Source: Deuterostichococcus epilithicus (taxonomy: Eukaryota; Chlorophyta; Trebouxiophyceae; Prasiolales; Stichococcaceae). Taken from it: DNA of 64,000 bases. Positions 2,505 to 36,476 of this stretch are shown here, piece by piece (position 1 is the stretch's first letter; each line of letters opens with the position of its first letter). The stretch spans positions 2,020,530-2,084,529 of the forward strand of contig JAVTLE010000023.1 in NCBI GenBank assembly GCA_033439295.1, read 5' to 3'. The position numbers were made by a program, and so were the translations under genes. The notes below the pieces were generated by a model. The model saw only the letters and a program-made list of their open reading frames with translations, had not been told where the DNA came from and searched no databases.

Positions 2505-2850
2505 GGTGCTGACGCTGGTCCCAGGTGCTTGGCGTGATCAACTGTGCGTGATGCTGGCGCTATGCACTTGTGCACCGTGGCCCGCAAGCCACAGCCTCAT
2601 CTCCTCGCTTGCTGAAGGGGTGCAAGGTTTTCACAGGGCAGTTGAACACCTTCAAACCCCTGTTCGCCCGACAAGTGTTTGCAGGCAATTCAGGCGGTTC
2701 GACACCGACGCAACTCCGCAATCAGCACTCGAATGCCGAGTAAAGCCTGTAGCGAGATCACCTGACAGCTGAGCGCCGTTCCTGCACTCGCAGCTGCCCG
2801 TAGCAGGCGATTTGATCACGTTGAATCGGCATTTGGCACAACCAGCAGGC

Positions 2851-3565
2851 ATGGCGGACGTGCAGTTTGAGCCCAACGACGATGAAATGCTGGATCTTGA
2901 CGGAGCAGAGCCTGCGCCCGCAGCGCCGCGTGTGCGTTCGAAGGTCACTTCTGTGAGGAAACAAAAGGGGCGAGGCTTCAGAGGCGAGGGAGATGCAGAC
3001 GAGCCACCGGACAGGAGCGTCGGCCGATACGAGTCACTGGAGACAGGCAGCGGCCCAGGCCCGCAGAAATGTGAGCTGGCTGCTCTCCCTCAAATTTGCT
3101 CACCCATGCACGGCGCCGCTGCGAAAGTTAGCTCGTTCGACATGGCTCCCTGCCTCGCGAGCACTCTGGTCTGTGAGCCCAGTCTACTGACGCAGACGCA
3201 CTTCGGCAGCGGGCCCATCTAGCAGCGCACCTTGGCGACCCCCCTTGCCTGTTTGAAAATCCGCAGCGGTGGAGGGCTGGGTGGTGTTCGCCACCAACAT
3301 CCACGAGGAGGCGCAGGAGGAGGACGTTCACGAGGCGTTCGCGGAGTTTGGGGAGGTGAAGAACATCTACCTCAACCTGGACCGGCGCACCGGCTACGTC
3401 AAGGGCTATGCTCTGATCGAGTATGTGCAGCAGCGGGAGGCCAAGGCCGCCATCGAGGGCATGAACGGCCAGGAGCTCCTCACGCAGCCCGTCAGCGTGA
3501 CGTGGGCCTTCAGCCAGGGCGCTGTACGGCGGGGGCGGCCGGGCGGCGGCCGCAGCCGGAGGTGA
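2851..3565 (+). CDS. RBM8A: RNA-binding protein 8A / Y14, exon junction complex core
   Basis: Exon 1 (2851-3070) encodes an acidic start, [18 protein letters not shown], a basic KQKGRGF segment and ends in SGPGPQK. Exon 2 (3267-3565) supplies one RRM. It begins [16 protein letters not shown], contains [20 protein letters not shown] and ends in an RG/RS-rich tail. Donor and acceptor join as K-S-V-E-G-W, as in animal and plant Y14. Y14 pairs with MAGO in the exon junction complex, which marks spliced mRNA upstream of exon junctions. About 138 residues is less than human RBM8A (174) because the C-terminal RS tail is short. The upstream ATG at 2812 is in frame but adds residues not seen in the family. 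Confidence 0.93.
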
Positions 3566-3864
3566 TGCGGCGGGTGCGACACCGCATGAGATGTACAACT
3601 CGTCAGAAGGTGCCGCGGGGCATCTGTGCGCGCAAGGGCACTACCATGTGGCGAGCAGAGGCACAAGCGATTTGAGACAGACGTCATCCCTATGTCTCAA
3701 GTTGTCTAGTAGACGTGGTGGGTCAACAGCCTTGCACAGAAGAGCCTCATTCTGGCGGCAATCTGCATTGTGCTTGGCGATTCAGTTGAGAAGCGTCAAG
3801 AGGTGCTCAGACAATTTGGCCCAGGTATACAAGCTTCCACAGTTTTGCCCATCAGGACCGCCTC

Positions 3865-4183
3865 TTAAAGCGCAGCACTCTCAAAAGACGTCATAATCCG
3901 CCTCAAGTTGTCCGCTGCCTGGCTGATGTCGCTTCTTGTGGGCTTGTCCGGCAACTCCGGCACGGCGGATGCTGGAAGGCCAATGGCCTGGGCATCCTGT
4001 GGGCAATGGATGCCACAAATGTGACAAAGGGTGGCAGTCCAAAACAGTTGCAGAGCTGCAATATCAGGCAGAGGTTCAATGACTGCTCACCTGTGCCTGC
4101 TGTTGGTACATCGCCTTCCAGCGCTTGATAGTATTTGGCATAACCCTGCGATGCGCAGCGGCGATGTGGGGCGAGTTCCACAT
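3865..4183 (-). CDS. Small unknown protein of 74 residues, two exons
   Basis: Exon 1 (4091-4183) reads MWNSPHIAAAHRRVMPNTIK and ends in QQQAQ before a GTGAGC donor. Exon 2 (3865-3996) begins DAQAIGLPASAVPELPDKPT and ends FESAAL then TAA. Both exons are phase 0, and an in-frame TGA lies about 11 codons upstream of the ATG, supporting this start unless another 5' exon exists. No transmembrane segment or cysteine motif is evident. A basic, tryptophan-containing N-terminus followed by a predicted short helix could suit a small organelle or complex subunit, but I recognise no family. Confidence 0.45.
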
Positions 4184-4999
4184 GGCAGCAGCGATGACAA
4201 CAGACAGGACTCAAGACAAGAACCAGCACCTAAAATTGGCTTCCAATGGCGTTCCAGCGTCATCCTGGCTGCATCCCGCCTGTGCATGCACCTTGCATCC
4301 TATTGCAACACCCAGAAACTGAAAGTTGCGAGAATGGGGACAGAACGTTGTAACATGTCGAGGCGCCGAGGTGAACGGTACAACAGGCAGCTCGGCTGGA
4401 ACATCAGTAGCAGGGGGGAAGGGGAGACCATGCAACAAATCTGTGTGACCGCCATGCGGCCGGCCACACAGGACCCTCCGGCGTGGAACTTCCCGGTGGG
4501 GTAGCTGTTTGGCGTGTAACACTTGCAGTGGGCTGCCTATGGGCATTGAATAGCATGTTTTCTGAGTATGCAAGCCCAGCCGAGTGCTCAGCTGCATCAC
4601 AGGGGCCGACTTTCACCGACCCGCAAATTTTCCTGAGACAGCAGCCACCGCATCACTCGCAAGAGCACTGAGTGAGAAAGAGCAGGCTATGAGGTCAATG
4701 ACTTTCGCTGCGCTGACAAGCAGGCTTCTTGGACCCGTCACACAGTCGCAAGGGGTTTACCATAGGGGGTGATCCCTCGCCTGTGTCCCTCTTCTTCTTG
4801 TGATGTACAGGTGCAGATCCGGTGTTTTGAACAGCAGATGGGTTGTCGACTTGTCATGCAGACGTACAGCGCATCAAGTAGGCTGCACATCGCCTCGCAT
4901 CCCAACCAGTGCCGATCCAGACACCCAGTCTGCTGCGCCGCCCACAGTAAGAGCACCAGCGAGCACGCTGCAGACGCCGACGTCTCCCCAGCAGCTCAG
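4184..4999. other. Unassigned stretch between divergent genes
   Basis: This is probably the shared upstream region of the 74-residue gene (-) and the MTHFR-like gene (+). Part of the plus-strand end may encode the MTHFR-like N-terminus: one frame stays open from about 4769 through 5187. I see no other supported gene. Confidence 0.4.
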
Positions 5000-6796
5000 A
5001 TGGCGCGGCACAGGCTTCAGCATCTGTTCCAAGGCGGATCGCCGGCGCTGCTGCTGGAGCGCAGCATTGGCGTACGAGCGGGCGTTGACGCCGACTTGTG
5101 GCAGGCCCTGCCCTTCGCTGGTCAGGTCACGCCGGACCTTCCCGTGGCAAGCAGCTGGTCCGGGCTGCTGCAAGCCGCATTGCGGAGGTGCGTGGCGAAG
5201 TGCAGCGTAGCGCTGTTGCCGCATGAATTGAAGCAACATGTGGGACGTCGCCAGTATGAGCCTGTGTTTGACAAGCAGCGTTACATCGGTCATGTGCATC
5301 GTGCAGGTTTGTTAGATCCACTGGCTCTCCCCATGCGCAGCCCGATCCTGGTCACGGCCGGCCGGCAACTGGCCATGTGGCAGAGGCTGCGGCACCTGGA
5401 CCATCACGCCCATGGACAATCAACACAGTCGCAGCACAGGTGCACAGACGTTTCCGCTTGCCAGAACGTCTGTTTGACTGGAACAGATTCTGTGCACCTG
5501 CCATGCAATCTGGAAACTCCCTGGACAGACTGGAATGCTGTGGCATGGCATGAACAGGTGCGTTCGCAGCGGGCGATTGAGGACAGGATGCGGCGGCTGA
5601 CGGATCCTGCCCAAGCCCTTGCGGATAAGCCCGCAGCAGACGCACTGCTGTGCCTGTCGGGGAGCCACCCGGCGCGGAGGTTGCCAGGCAGCAGCAGGTC
5701 AGTACTGGGTCATGGTCTGCAATCCTGGGTTGTCAGGCACTTCTGAGCAGCAGCACACATTCACTGCTCCTGAGAACGGCTGTGCGTGGCGAATTTGCGC
5801 CATGATGCCTCCCACAGACTTTTCAATATGAGAGTGTGCGACTGTTGCAGGTGGCTGCTGGACAGCTGTCAGATCCTGCGAACTGCGGCAAGGCTGCGCA
5901 GTGAGGGGCAACTGCCGTCACAAACGTCCATCTGGGCGGTGGAGAACCCTTTGACTGCCAACGCATCCTGTTTTGCACAAAAGGTACGCTCTCCCCGAGG
6001 ACCAGTCAAGCGTCAACCGGAGTGCCCCTGCCTGGCTGTCAGTCCCATTGCTGTGCATGTTGTGGGATCAAGGGCCATCAAACCATCTGCATCGTGTGCA
6101 GGTGGAGGCAGGCGCAGAGGTCATCGTGACGCAGCCGCCTCTGATATGGGGTAAATTCGAGTCATGGTTCGAGCAGCTTCAAAGGTGACATTGCGCGCCT
6201 CTTGACAGCAGCCTAAAAATGGCTCAGCTGCCTGCCGCAGGCGCACAAGCAGCGCCAGGGATGCCACTCCCTGCCACCAGTGACTCAGTCGACTTTTCAA
6301 CTTGCAGGGAGGGTCTGGCAGAGGAAGCCCGGCTGGTGGTGGGCCTGCCGTTCCTTACGTCGCCGGCCAACCTGGCCTTCTGGGCGGCACTCTGCGACTG
6401 CCGGGGCGTCGCCGGCTTCGACGCCGTCATGACGGAATTCAAGAGGGCAGAGGCCGCCGGCGCGCCGCAACTGCGGCAGTTCTGCAGGGCCTGGAATGCC
6501 GACCTGCTGCACAAGGTGCGCCGATGAGCTCTGCCATGCTCGTGCTTGCACCAGCGCCGCTTGAACCCTGGGCTCGTCCGGCAATGGGGTCGCTTGGGCT
6601 TGCCGTCGTCATGGTCGAGTCACAGTGCTGCTCTCCAACCCAAGTGGCTATGCGTCAGATAGGCCCACCATCTTTCACAGGCAATCTCACCAAATGTAAT
6701 GTTTCACAGGTGCAACAGCTGCCTGGCGTGAGCGGCCTGCACGTCATGCCGCTGACCAAGGCTGCACGTGGCTTGGCTAAAGACCTGCTGGCTTGA
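5000..6796 (+). CDS. Methylenetetrahydrofolate-reductase-like protein
   Basis: Phase-consistent exons are 5558-5697 (contains DALLCLSGSHPARRLPGS), 5851-5983 (LPSQTSIWAVENPLTA), 6102-6184 (VEAGAEVIVTQPPLIWGKF), 6308-about 6515 (LVVGLPFLTSPANLAFW) and 6710-6796 (GVSGLHVMPLTKAARG, stop). The series 'SGSHP', 'AVENP', 'GAEVIVTQ' and 'GLHVMPL' follows the order of conserved beta-strand ends in the flavin-linked MTHFR barrel. In true MTHFR these are GDHP, 'GADFxxTQ' and 'GxHFYTLN', so this is a divergent relative and its substrate is open. Upstream, 5000-5187 (MARHRLQHLFQGG...) and about 5307-5430 (LALPMRSPILVTAG) look coding, but their joining phase is unclear. The start could lie upstream, as far as 4769. 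Confidence 0.6.
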
Positions 6797-20629: not shown

Positions 20630-31300
<10,671 letters not shown>

Positions 31301-31574
31301 GGCGGACAGAGCAATGGAGGAGGATTTTGCATCAGAAAGATATTTTTTTTGGGTGGCAGGCAGCCGTCCTTCAAACAGTTGGTCCGTCTTGTCTGAGGGG
31401 GTTGTGCCCTGAGAACACTTAGAGGAGAGCGAGACTGTGTGGTCGATTGCATCCAGTGTTTGTCTACCCTGCCCGGACGGTAGGTCCAGAGATGCATGTT
31501 CGAGCTTGTGCATGGCACAACTGTGCTCCCAACGTCAATAATCTGTTTCAACGTGACTGTATGTAAAGCAAATA
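31301..31574. other. ABCC 3' untranslated region
   Basis: Non-coding sequence from the ABCC stop to the edge of the foldback array. A TGTAA signal at 31562-31566 would place poly(A) addition almost at the first repeat, so the transcript probably ends just before or inside the array. Confidence 0.55.
31562..31566 (+). terminator. TGTAA poly(A) signal for the ABCC gene
   Basis: TGTAA lies 262 bases downstream of the ABCC stop, directly before the foldback repeat array. Confidence 0.5.
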
Positions 31575-31579
31575 TGGCT

Positions 31580-32520
31580 CACCGGGGCCCCGATTAGAGG
31601 ATGCAAATGAAAAAGTAGCCGCGGCCTCATTGGGCCATGGCAGCAACAGGACTGGCGGCTCCGGTGTCGCCGGTGGCTACTTTTACATTCTTCTCCTCCG
31701 ATCGGGGCGGGAATGGTGGATGGCCTGCGCGGCCCGACCGGAGGAAGAGTACAACAAAGTAGCCACCGTGGCTACTTTAACACTTTCTCCACCGATTGGG
31801 GAGTAGATAGATGGCCTCGACGCCGGAGCCGCCAGATCTGTTTCCTGCCAGTGCCTGCCGGAGCCGCCGTCGCTGGTGGCTAGATTTTCATTTCCCTCCT
31901 CCGGTTGGGGCGCCGAGGCCATCAATCTACTTCCCGATCGGAGGAGAAAAATGGGAAAGTAGCCACCGGCGACGCCGGAGCCGCCAGTTCTGTTCCCGGA
32001 GCTGCCGGTTATGTTCCCTGCCAGTGGCTACTTTCTGTCACTTGCCTTCCTCCGATCGGGGCCCCGAGGCCATCTATCTACTCCCCGATCGGAGGAGAAG
32101 AATGTAAAAGTAGCCACGGGCTTTACACCGGAGCCGCCAGTTCTGTTCCCTGCCAGTGGCTACTTTTTCATTTGCATCCTCCGATCGGGGTGCCATGGCC
32201 ATTCACTCCCCGCTTGGTGTAGAAATATGTAAAAGTAGCCACCGGCAACACAAGAGCTGCCGGGTTTGTTCCCTGCCAGTGGCTACTTTTGATTATTTGC
32301 CTCCTCCGATCGGGGTGCCGAGGGCCCTGAGGCCATCTTTCTACTCCCCGATCGGTGGAGAAAAACCGTGAAAGTAGCCACCGGCGACACCGGAGCCGCC
32401 ACTTCTGTTCCCTGCCGTGGTTCGTTGAGGCCGCGGGCTACTTTTTCATATACATCCTCCGATCGGGGCCCCGAGGCCATCCATCTACTCCCCGATCGGT
32501 GGGAAAAAATGTAAAATCCG
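31580..32520. repeat. Tandem array of foldback (inverted-repeat) units, about seven copies
   Basis: Each unit has a left arm that starts GTGGCTACTTTT and ends CCTCCGATCGGGG, a loop of about 18 bases (gaggccatctatcta-like), and a right arm that is the imperfect reverse complement (CCCCGATCGGAGGAG ... AAAAGTAGCCAC). Arms are about 35 bases. Spacers of about 40-60 bases (ggcgacaccggagccgcc, agttctgttccctgcca) join the units, giving a period of about 125-150. CTCCGATCGGGG occurs near 31695, 32049, 32179, 32303 and 32456, with degenerate copies between. The spacer at about 31640-31665 is in reverse orientation relative to the others. No open frame crosses the array in a credible way. It could be a satellite or a miniature foldback element amplified in place. 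Confidence 0.9.
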
Positions 32521-32640: not shown

Positions 32641-33571
32641 ATGGGAGAGTCGCTGCTCGAACGTGAGCGCCGGATTCGCCGGAAGGTGGAGTCAATGTGC
32701 GCAGGCATTGCGCATTCCCATTTGCAAGGATACGGCTGGCCTAGGTCTTCGGAAGCATCAAAGGCAGCAGCTTGAAAGTGTTTGTCCTTTTGCAGCTTCA
32801 ACAAGCGAGAGGAGGACTTTGTGACCAGGGCAGAGTATGACAACTACCTTGAGGAGCGCGAGGACATCGCCTTCAACCTCATCGAAGCCATTGACGTCGC
32901 TGCAAACACAGAGCGGCTGGCTCGCTACGAGCGCGAGAATGCGGACAGCATCGTCGCTGCGGCAGCGCGGCAGGTGAGGTCGCCCTGCACTTCCGCCATT
33001 TTGTTATGGCAGCGGCGGCATTCCCGCGTGAGCATGGCACGTGGGAATGCCACGTGCAAGTCTTTGGGGACGATGGTGCAGGCTGAGGAAGCGCGGCAGA
33101 TCGAAGCTGCTGCGGCGCTAAGAGATGGCGACGGTGAAGCCACATCCTCTCTGACGGCAGCCGCGGCGGCAGCCGAAACACAGCACGCTGAGGGGCATGG
33201 CTCGGTGCAGTACGCAGCGGCGCAGCCAAGCGCCACAGACGTGCGGTGCGTGCTGCGTCTGTCGTGCCTGAGATATGGCTGAGTTTTCTATCATGCTTAT
33301 GCGCGACACAATGGGTGTGACAGACCCTGTACGTGACACTTTTCAGCAACCACTGGAGGCTTCGTTGCTCTGACAATCAGTTTGCTATGCGCGCAGGGCT
33401 GCACCACCACCACAAGTCTCACAGTCAGATGCCAGCAATGTCTATGCCGCAAGAGATGCAAATCTGAACGACATGCAGCTGCATGCATTGATGGCAAAAG
33501 CAAGCGGCTGGGACCCTGGCCTGGTCGACATGCGAGCACTTCAGCAGGCTTACAGCTCCTTGACGGCCTAA
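32641..33571 (+). CDS. MAT1: CDK-activating kinase assembly factor MAT1, lacking the N-terminal RING
   Basis: Four exons join in exact phase: 32641-32696 (MGESLLERERRIRRKVES), 32796-32973 (FNKREEDFVTRAEYDNYLEE and IAFNLIEAIDVAANTERLAR), 33082-33245 (Ala-rich, EEARQIEAAAALRDGDGEA) and 33397-33571 (ASGWDPGLVDMRALQQAYSS, LTA stop). 'KVESIFNKREEDF' matches the MAT1 'NKREEDF' block after the RING, and the end resembles the animal MAT1 C-terminus that binds CDK7-cyclin H. The product is 190 residues against about 310 in human. The RING that normally precedes the first exon is not found upstream, where the foldback array sits. Either the gene is 5'-truncated, or it starts at 32641 and is RING-less, or an exon was lost in assembly. 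Confidence 0.85.
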
Positions 33572-35233: not shown

Positions 35234-36476
35234 CTAGGTGCTTTTGCCGCGCGCCGCCCGCCACGCTGACCAGTCCACGAGCGCCTGCCGCTGCCGCGCG
35301 TTCAGCTTTGCCTTCGGCCGTGCCCGCTGCACGATGTTGTGCGCGTCTGTGAAGTTGGGCGCAGTTCCGTCCGCTACCAGCGCCGCGCACAGCATGACGT
35401 TTGAGCGGCCGTGTCCATGTGCGCAGTGCACGTAAACGCCCCGCCCGGCCTGCTTCTGTTTGAGCGCCCACTGCACGCCCTCCTCAATCTGGGGCACCGA
35501 TGGGGCTGCAGTGCATAGGAAGACGGCAATCTAAACCCTAGCAGCTGTGCTTGCAGCAATCGTCGTCACAATTTCCTCACACGTTTGCATGGGGCCCCAC
35601 TGAGAAAGGAGAAGCCCTCACCTTGCGTGTCCCAGCACCGTGCGTTGTTGTTGTACGGGAGAGACCTGTTTTACAGAGACAACCCATGGTTTCAATCCAC
35701 ACAGAGGTGCAACATACAGCCAGCTGAGCTTGAGCGCTCGAGTGCCACCAAGGTCTGTGTGACTGCGGCAGGCAAAAAATTCAGCACAACCGACCTGTAT
35801 TTGGGCCTCAGCGGCAGCTCGCAAGTCAGGTCTAGGATCGCCCCCGCGTCAGCAGGCAGCGGCTGCCGGGCGCCCACCCACGACCCTAAATACCTGAGGA
35901 CCATCATTTGCACACAACATGGGACTCGCATTCGCCAAGCTTGTACAGATGGGCAAGATGGCGGCCGCCAGTCACAGCACCTCTAGAAGCGCACCAGCCA
36001 GGCGCAACCTTGTTCCAGGGCGGTTCCGAGGACACGCGGCGCTGAATGAACAGCTTAGTGCGCAGGCCCACGTGATACGGCCAGAAGAGGCCCAGCCCCC
36101 ACCAGCTGATCTGTCCGTCCGGCCTCTGCGCAGGCAAGAAAGGCACTCGTGCTGCAAGGCTTACAGCCACGACGTCCAAAGGCTACAAGTACGGGAAAGA
36201 CTCAACGTTGAGTGCACGCTCAATGTATATATTGCGGCTCTCGCGCACCTTGCCCAGCAGCCAGGTGGTGTGCGCGGCGAACAGCGGCGACGCGGCGGCG
36301 GCCACCACAAAGCCTGCTGCGGCGGCGTGCGCCAGGCCGTACGTAAGGATCGGGTGGTGCCGTTTGTGTGCAAGCGCAGCGAGGGTCGCGGGCAGGATGG
36401 AGACGGTGGCCACGATGCTGGACAGCGTCAGGATCCCCATGCTTTCAACGGAGGGAAAGACCACCCTCCGCTCCAC
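35234..36476 (-). CDS. Membrane-anchored tyrosine/dual-specificity phosphatase-like protein
   Basis: Exon 1 (about 36190-36476) starts MERRVVFPSVESMGILTLSS and has two or three hydrophobic segments (ILTLSSIVATVSILPATLAA; AAAAGFVVAAAASPLFAA). Later exons give RRPDGQISWWGLGLFWPYH-type text (about 35985-36140), AILDLTCELPLRPKYR (about 35780-35890), a short exon with a WDTQ strand (about 35626-35665), and PSVPQIEEGVQWALKQKQAG followed by VYVHCAHGHGRSNVML (35234-about 35506). HCAHGHGRS is a CX5R phosphatase loop, with the nucleophilic Cys and the Arg both present, and the WDTQAPS turn before it fits the general-acid region. The substrate could be phosphoprotein or phospholipid. Layout (N-terminal membrane helices, C-terminal CX5R domain) resembles bacterial YnbD-like proteins. 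Confidence 0.7.

What the first reader, a model, noticed from the sequence alone, without database searches (positions are those of the whole stretch)
31580..32520. Array of about seven foldback repeats with one inverted spacer
Each unit is an imperfect hairpin with about 35-base arms (outer GTGGCTACTTTT / AAAAGTAGCCAC, inner CTCCGATCGGGG / CCCCGATCGGAG), repeated every 125-150 bases. The spacer near 31640 is reversed relative to the others, so the array is not a simple head-to-tail satellite and may have grown by inversion or by foldback insertion. It may be an undescribed miniature element or a structural site such as a replication pause or boundary. If transcribed, it could yield double-stranded RNA.
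Basis: seen in the sequence. Interest (0 to 1): 0.75.

Follow-up and report, generated by a model that had tools for sequence, protein, structure and literature searches.

The report
Hairpin-array foldback element, decayed copy
The array is real: it looks like a worn copy of a small family of repeat elements, built from hairpins inside larger mirror-image repeats, and the better-kept relatives elsewhere in the genome sit between unusually long duplications of neighbouring DNA.

Summary
Window 31587-32516 has 14 hairpin arms: six hairpins (one cut short) and two lone arms; one spacer (about 31645-31672) is inverted. Five of six hairpins fold far better than shuffles. The array lies in a 46.8-Mb eukaryotic assembly, between exons of an ABC transporter and of MAT1. 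The same arm occurs at 13 loci (87 pattern hits, reversed control 5; 5 isolated hits left out). In the best-kept copy (C5) reversed units on the left face forward units on the right, a roughly 700-bp inverted repeat at 92% identity; the window's inverted spacer marks the same kind of axis. Three loci are flanked by direct duplications of locus-specific DNA: C5 149 bp (94%), C16 162 bp (99%), C18 decayed. The other ten, the window included, show none that is convincing. Best reading: a non-autonomous foldback-type family with hairpin-unit inverted repeats and target duplications far longer than the 7-10 bp of the foldback elements read about; the window copy is truncated at both ends. Selection on each hairpin as RNA is not supported. 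New variant of a known kind; the long duplications rest on two clean cases and one decayed one.

The parts
31587..31623 (-). lone right-hand arm; left limit of the array, starting in the middle of a hairpin
   Evidence: arm profile, E 1.6e-8
31645..31672 (-). inverted spacer, reverse complement of the later spacers; marks the axis of the foldback (inference)
   Evidence: inverted-repeat pairs I1, I2 and I4
31673..31766 (.). hairpin 1
   Evidence: z -6.61; arms, the right one weak (E 0.0033)
31766..31803 (+). lone left-hand arm, partner missing
   Evidence: arm profile, E 6.7e-7
31876..31966 (.). hairpin 2
   Evidence: z -6.21
31967..32023 (+). forward spacer
   Evidence: direct-repeat family D2, spacer list
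32024..32117 (.). hairpin 3
   Evidence: z -6.33
32118..32155 (+). forward spacer
32156..32242 (.). hairpin 4
   Evidence: z -4.10
32243..32278 (+). forward spacer
32279..32381 (.). hairpin 5
   Evidence: z -7.47
32382..32433 (+). forward spacer
   Evidence: direct-repeat family D2
32434..32516 (.). hairpin 6, right arm cut short; right limit of the array
   Evidence: z -1.93, 8 of 200 shuffles as good; right arm weak, E 0.013

Best explanation
The array is a truncated, aged copy of a small family of foldback-type repeat elements. Shown: a unit is a hairpin of about 90 bases plus a spacer; in the best-kept copy (C5) units run one way on one side of an axis and the other way on the other side, so the whole is a mirror-image repeat; three copies lie between two direct copies of sequence particular to their locus, and their ends lie in the spacer, a short way outside the last hairpin arm. 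Inferred: a ready-made array inserted as one piece, and the target was duplicated over about 150-170 bases, either by nicks far apart on the two strands followed by fill-in, or by an insertion linked to replication. The mobilising enzyme would come from elsewhere, as no protein family above its cut-off was found in ten open frames of the arrays. The window copy has lost both ends, which would explain why it has no clear flanking duplication.
For: Same arm family at 13 loci. C5 macro-arms, L049 2660-3364 against 4019-4752, 92% over 698 aligned positions as an inverted repeat. Flanking direct duplications: C5 149 bp at 94%, C16 162 bp at 98.8%, C18 local alignment score 76, against a maximum of 46 in 156 cross-locus pairings. 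The genome search reports the C5 and the C16 flanking sequence only at their own two places. The six ends lie 44, 26, 35, 23, 27 and 34 nt beyond the outermost GTAGCC, and five of six go on with AC(C/G)GGCGACA; inside the same three elements this continuation is found at 10 of 59 GTAGCC in all, so 5 of 53 away from the ends. Hairpins within C5 and C16 are on average 85% identical, less than the flanking copies. Pfam: none of ten frames from the C5, C16 and window arrays above cut-off.
Against: Flanking duplications stand out at 3 of 13 loci only; the window scores 35 (empirical p 0.051) and C12b 38 (p 0.032), neither convincing over 13 tests. Two of the six ends were placed by eye: with the aligned edges C16 left would be 56 nt and C18 right 142 nt from the arm. 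The genome search with the right C18 flank did not report the left copy, and gave a 68-base partial match on another contig, so C18 rests on the local alignment. Some hairpin pairs inside C5 are as alike as 97.6%, closer than its flanks. Duplications this long are not what foldback elements leave in the papers seen. No transposase family was searched for in the genome, and no empty site could be examined.
Confidence: 0.6

Rival explanations
1. An ordinary local satellite or minisatellite: hairpin-bearing units multiplied and inverted in place by slippage, unequal exchange and template switching, without element-like movement.
For: Variable unit number and length, lone arms, and window ends in mid-hairpin; on average arms resemble the same-side arms of other hairpins more than their own partner in all five arrays measured, as expected if whole units multiply; some near-identical hairpin pairs in C5 (97.6%) and C16 (95.3%).
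Against: Thirteen dispersed loci share the unit; locus-specific flanking duplications at three; element ends in the same part of the unit; C16 hairpins on average far more diverged (85%) than its flanking copies (98.8%).
Confidence: 0.22
2. A cluster of small-RNA (miRNA or siRNA) precursor hairpins kept for its RNA product.
For: Strong folding of five of six window hairpins; an Argonaute-like gene on C7 (one Piwi match over the cut-off, with a stop in the read, and one below it); many Chlamydomonas miRNAs come from introns and UTRs (passages of PMC4817775); on 33 hairpins the percentage paired, the cells with double changes (43) and the covariation score exceed all 500 shuffles, and slid partners pair in only 35-54% of cells.
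Against: Partner arms are not significantly closer than arms of different hairpins in 4 of 5 arrays (permutation p 0.11, 0.60, 0.85, 0.88; C5 alone 0.0006). G-U and A-C columns do not differ (18 and 11, p 0.26). The number of pairs with double changes and of pair types is ordinary (200 and 310 of 500 shuffles as high). Rfam: no match at gathering score in the window; 12 matches at E up to 1 in four loci, 9 of them to miRNA families, all below gathering and none in the locus that holds the window array.
Confidence: 0.1
3. Capture of array DNA at chromosome breaks: a staggered break filled in and sealed around a loose piece of the array, without an enzyme that recognises its ends.
For: Explains flanking duplications much longer than a transposase footprint; host-derived flanking repeats surround moved genes in Arabidopsis (passages of PMC2869330).
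Against: Five of six ends carry the same continuation, found at only 5 of 53 other GTAGCC of these elements; random pieces should end anywhere in a unit. This is weakened by the two ends placed by eye.
Confidence: 0.15

Closest known systems
Tetris, foldback transposon of Drosophila virilis (PMC4079207, passages seen)
   Same: Long inverted repeats with tandem repeats, a variable middle part without apparent coding capacity, no autonomous copy found, and a link to satellite-like arrays.
   Different: 8-10 bp target duplications; here 149 and 162 bp. Here each repeat unit is itself a hairpin of about 90 bases; the passages seen do not describe that for Tetris.
Tm1 Mutator/Foldback family of root-knot nematodes (PMC3169594, passages seen)
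   Same: Composite inverted repeats of variable length.
   Different: Duplications of 8-10 bp, mostly 9 (45 of 53 elements); a transposase-coding group is known for Tm1, while here the genome was not searched for one.
Galileo of Drosophila mojavensis (PMC3573991, passages seen)
   Same: Long inverted repeats that grow and shrink through internal tandem repeats.
   Different: 7-bp duplications; tandem units of about 210 bp, not described as hairpins in the passages seen.
Rotifer R9 rDNA retrotransposon (title only, in reference lists)
   Different: An rDNA-specific retrotransposon; neither an rDNA target nor a reverse transcriptase was searched for here.

Membership tests
Foldback (FB-type) DNA elements | long inverted repeats built of tandem shorter repeats | tested here: met
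   C5: macro-arms 92% over 698 aligned positions, made of hairpin units. In the window only one inverted spacer and a lone arm remain of the left side.
Foldback (FB-type) DNA elements | short target-site duplication (7-10 bp in the papers seen) | tested here: not met
   149 bp at C5 and 162 bp at C16; C18 decayed, aligned over about 105 bases; nothing convincing at the other ten loci. Duplications of only a few bases were not looked for systematically.
Foldback (FB-type) DNA elements | shared terminal sequence at both ends | tested here: inconclusive
   Four of four ends of C5 and C16 and one of two of C18 carry the same continuation, against 5 of 53 other GTAGCC inside; but two of the six edges were set by eye, and the window copy ends in mid-hairpin on both sides.
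Foldback (FB-type) DNA elements | autonomous partner with a transposase | not tested
   No genome search for transposase families was made; the 12 genome searches went to other questions. Pfam gave no transposase in ten frames of the arrays or in ten further frames of seven array loci, nine of them without any match.
MITE | short single element with terminal inverted repeats and a duplication of a few bases | tested here: not met
   Multi-unit arrays, up to 2.4 kb at C5; long duplications at three loci. One locus (C19b) holds a single arm. The definition is recalled.
Satellite DNA | long head-to-tail arrays | tested here: not met
   Units change orientation within arrays; the 13 loci found are short.
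miRNA/siRNA precursor cluster | defined small RNAs cut from the hairpins | not testable with these tools
   No RNA data.
miRNA/siRNA precursor cluster | arms of one hairpin co-evolve to keep pairing | tested here: inconclusive
   Covariation over the whole set, but no significant within-hairpin excess in 4 of 5 arrays.

The most novel reading that the evidence does not exclude
A foldback element family that inserts by a route that duplicates roughly 150-170 bp of target, about the length of a nucleosome core or an Okazaki fragment: for instance nicks on either side of a nucleosome, or insertion during lagging-strand synthesis. Its hairpins within a foldback would be the substrate. The size comparison is recalled knowledge and rests on two clean cases and one decayed one.
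Probability: 0.2. Interest if true: 0.75.

Novelty: new variant of a known kind. Interest (0 to 1): 0.5.

Why it matters
If the long flanking duplications are true insertion footprints, they point to an integration route not described for the foldback elements in the papers seen here, and they make it testable: compare strains for empty sites and measure duplication lengths over more insertions. The family also shows inversion at two scales (hairpin and array), which is useful for asking how mirror-image repeats grow and persist in compact genomes.

Tried and rejected
Centromere or one-per-chromosome site: the 13 loci lie on 7 of 21 contigs, with several on C1, C12, C16 and C19; on C3, C9 and C11 there were only isolated hits taken as chance. 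Known structured RNA: no Rfam match at gathering score in the window, only sub-threshold matches in the C5 and C16 loci (four loci given). Virus origin: no exact match to the arm pattern in viral contigs (exact matches only). RNA-level selection: tested by within-hairpin against between-hairpin arm similarity and by G-U against A-C columns; not supported. Flanks as long terminal repeats of the element: rejected for C5 and C16, because each flanking sequence was reported only at its own locus. Coding content: ten frames in arrays gave one weak Dicer_dimer match below the cut-off (E 0.0015, no stretch passing on its own), taken as chance. Flanking duplications at the other ten loci: best scores 23 to 38; two of these (window 35, C12b 38) exceed the 95th percentile of the cross-locus null (33.5), none its maximum (46); not claimed. 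The array limits used there were set by eye. Organism: not settled; TTTAGGG repeats stand at the start of contigs C1 and C5 in the part that was listed, and intron-bearing genes show a eukaryote; a green alga is my guess. A paper search for the assembly by size gave nothing. Dropped before counting: five isolated hits (C3:2144830, C5:2095720, C9:1846122, C11:1888903, C12:2887224), because the reversed control also gave five; they were not fetched. The covariance model could not be used on the genome. A cryptophyte polinton-like virus paper that came up twice was looked at in passages (PMC12220804): its duplications are of about 4-7 bp, not comparable.

Full report
What is there. The window is G000:C19:2020530-2084529 of a 46.8-Mb assembly in 21 contigs. 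At 31587-32516 a profile of the arm finds 14 arms: six hairpins, the last truncated, and two lone arms. Five hairpins have folding z-scores of -4.1 to -7.5, the truncated sixth -1.9. The spacer at about 31645-31672 is inverted relative to the later ones. Upstream lie exons of an ABC transporter (Pfam ABC_tran in two frames, ABC_membrane in one; the best solved chains for one exon are ABCC proteins). Downstream lies a MAT1 exon at 32782-33279 (E 2.4e-17). Five of the ten frames given had no match, among them the frame (30979-31419) in which I read the end of the transporter. That the transporter ends at 31302 and MAT1 starts at 32643, which would make the array intergenic, is therefore my own reading.

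The family. A DNA search with two window units found matches on C5, C12, C16, C18 and C19 (a one-unit query found fewer). A paired-arm pattern, its own reverse complement, found 12 places with none in the reversed control. A degenerate arm pattern with up to 3 mismatches gave 87 hits against 5 for the reversed control. Grouped and fetched, these make 13 loci with the window: three on C1, one each on C5, C6 and C18, three on C12, two each on C16 and C19. Five isolated hits were left out as chance. Two DNA searches with more divergent loci found no new ones. The tool calls its counts lower bounds. Two subfamilies differ in the inner arm: GATCGGGG (C18, C19, C12a) and CGTCCGAGCGC (C5, C16, C12b); the outer arm and a spacer core are shared.

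Architecture. Units are not simply head to tail. In C5 the spacers read in reverse up to about 4022 of L049 and forward from 4110. Its macro-arms (2660-3364 and 4019-4752) are 92% identical as inverted repeats over 698 aligned positions, with four more reversed hairpins between them. C12c has three plus arms followed by seven minus arms, some of them weak. The window's single inverted spacer next to hairpin 1 is the same kind of axis with nearly all of the left side missing (inference). A non-hairpin stretch with an A+T-rich core recurs at C12b, C16 and C19b; C18 appears by eye to hold it reversed (not tested).

Ends and flanks. Comparing left and right flanks, C5 has a 149-bp direct duplication (94%) and C16 a 162-bp one (98.8%). 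C18 has a decayed one, aligned over about 105 bases and by eye reaching about 145 bases on the left and 210 on the right. Against 156 pairings of left and right flanks from different loci (mean 27, 95th percentile 33.5, maximum 46) these three score 262, 316 and 76; the other ten score 23 to 38, the window 35 and C12b 38. The genome search reports the C5 and C16 flanks only at their own two places; with the right C18 flank it reports that copy and a 68-base partial match on C16, and not the left copy. In the 64-kb window the one direct pair of at least 80 bp at 200-6000 bp distance lies inside the array, so such pairs are not common background there. The six ends lie 23-44 nt outside the last GTAGCC, and five of six go on with AC(C/G)GGCGACA. 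Two of these edges were set by eye: C16 left, where I took the duplication to run 21 bases past the aligned part because of a small tandem repeat, and C18 right; with aligned edges they would be 56 and 142 nt. The continuation is ordinary spacer sequence, but it follows only 5 of 53 GTAGCC away from the ends of these three elements (10 of 59 in all), so it is concentrated at the ends.

Order of events. Hairpins within C16 and within C5 are on average 85% identical, while their flanking copies are 98.8% and 94% identical. If the flanking copies date the insertion, much of the array's diversity was there before, which favours insertion of a ready-made array. Some pairs are closer (up to 97.6% in C5, 95.3% in C16), so units may also have multiplied later. 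Gene conversion between flank copies would weaken the argument.

Coding content. Ten frames in the C5, C16 and window arrays gave no Pfam family above cut-off; one had a weak Dicer_dimer match below it. Ten further frames at seven array loci, most of them in the flanks, gave one match, a dehydrogenase E1 gene beside the C16 array. No transposase was seen, but the genome was not searched for one.

RNA reading. The genome has an Argonaute-like gene: one Piwi match over the cut-off, with a stop in the read, and one below it, both on C7. An alignment of 33 hairpins shows 94.4% paired cells and covariation above all 500 shuffles; slid partners pair in 35-54% of cells; but the number of pairs with double changes and of pair types is ordinary (200 and 310 of 500 shuffles as high), and the clearest double changes separate the two subfamilies. 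Within arrays, left arms resemble left arms and right arms right arms more than partners resemble each other, on average, in all five arrays measured; partner arms are not significantly closer than non-partners in four of five (p 0.11, 0.60, 0.85, 0.88; C5 p 0.0006). G-U and A-C columns do not differ (18 and 11, p 0.26). This fits inheritance of whole units and gives no support to selection on each hairpin.

Comparison with known kinds. In passages seen, Tetris (PMC4079207) and Tm1 (PMC3169594) are foldback elements with repeat-built inverted repeats and 8-10 bp duplications; Galileo (PMC3573991) has tandem repeats in its inverted repeats and 7-bp duplications. The present family matches in architecture and fails on duplication length, so it works like a foldback element but is not filed as a member of a named family. 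An exceptionally long target duplication is reported by title for rotifer R9 elements (reference lists only). Host-derived flanking repeats around moved genes are described in Arabidopsis (PMC2869330, passages). Seven paper searches listed no description of such elements in an alga, as far as titles and starts of abstracts show; I saw 15 of 49, 15 of 26, 12 of 13, 0 of 0, 0 of 0, 20 of 32 and 1 of 1 papers. Most subscription papers are not held.

Verdict. The feature is real and belongs to a small dispersed family. The window copy is a truncated, aged member and by itself modest. The interest lies in the long flanking duplications of better-kept members, which rest on two clean cases and one decayed one.

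Noticed in passing
L049 (C5) 2467-2615 and 5057-5205; L051 (C16) 3686-3847 and 4883-5044: Locus-specific direct duplications of 149 and 162 bp on either side of related arrays, each reported only at its own two places in the genome.
   Followed up: yes
L050 3599-3740, L051 about 4140-4201, L065 about 2165-2234; reversed by eye at L052 4600-4700: A shared non-hairpin stretch with an A+T-rich core inside or beside the arrays.
   Followed up: partly
L053, L060, L061, L064, L066 just outside the arrays: The more divergent loci share sequences beyond the arrays (for example L064 2640-2677 with L066 2532-2570, 85%; L060 1738-2008 with L064 2335-2592 inverted, 69%), so their elements may be larger than the array.
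   Followed up: partly
L051 about 4202-4227: N bases inside the C16 element next to a long C-run: a likely sequencing or assembly weak spot.
   Followed up: no
L051 7966-8688, plus strand: A dehydrogenase E1 component gene about 3 kb from the C16 array (Pfam E1_dh, E 2.5e-24).
   Followed up: no
window 35234-35494, minus strand: Reading frame resembling a dual-specificity phosphatase, just below the Pfam cut-off (31.9 against 33.5 bits).
   Followed up: no
L060 2956-3038 and 3023-3106: An 84-bp overlapping tandem repeat at 94% near the C1a array.
   Followed up: no
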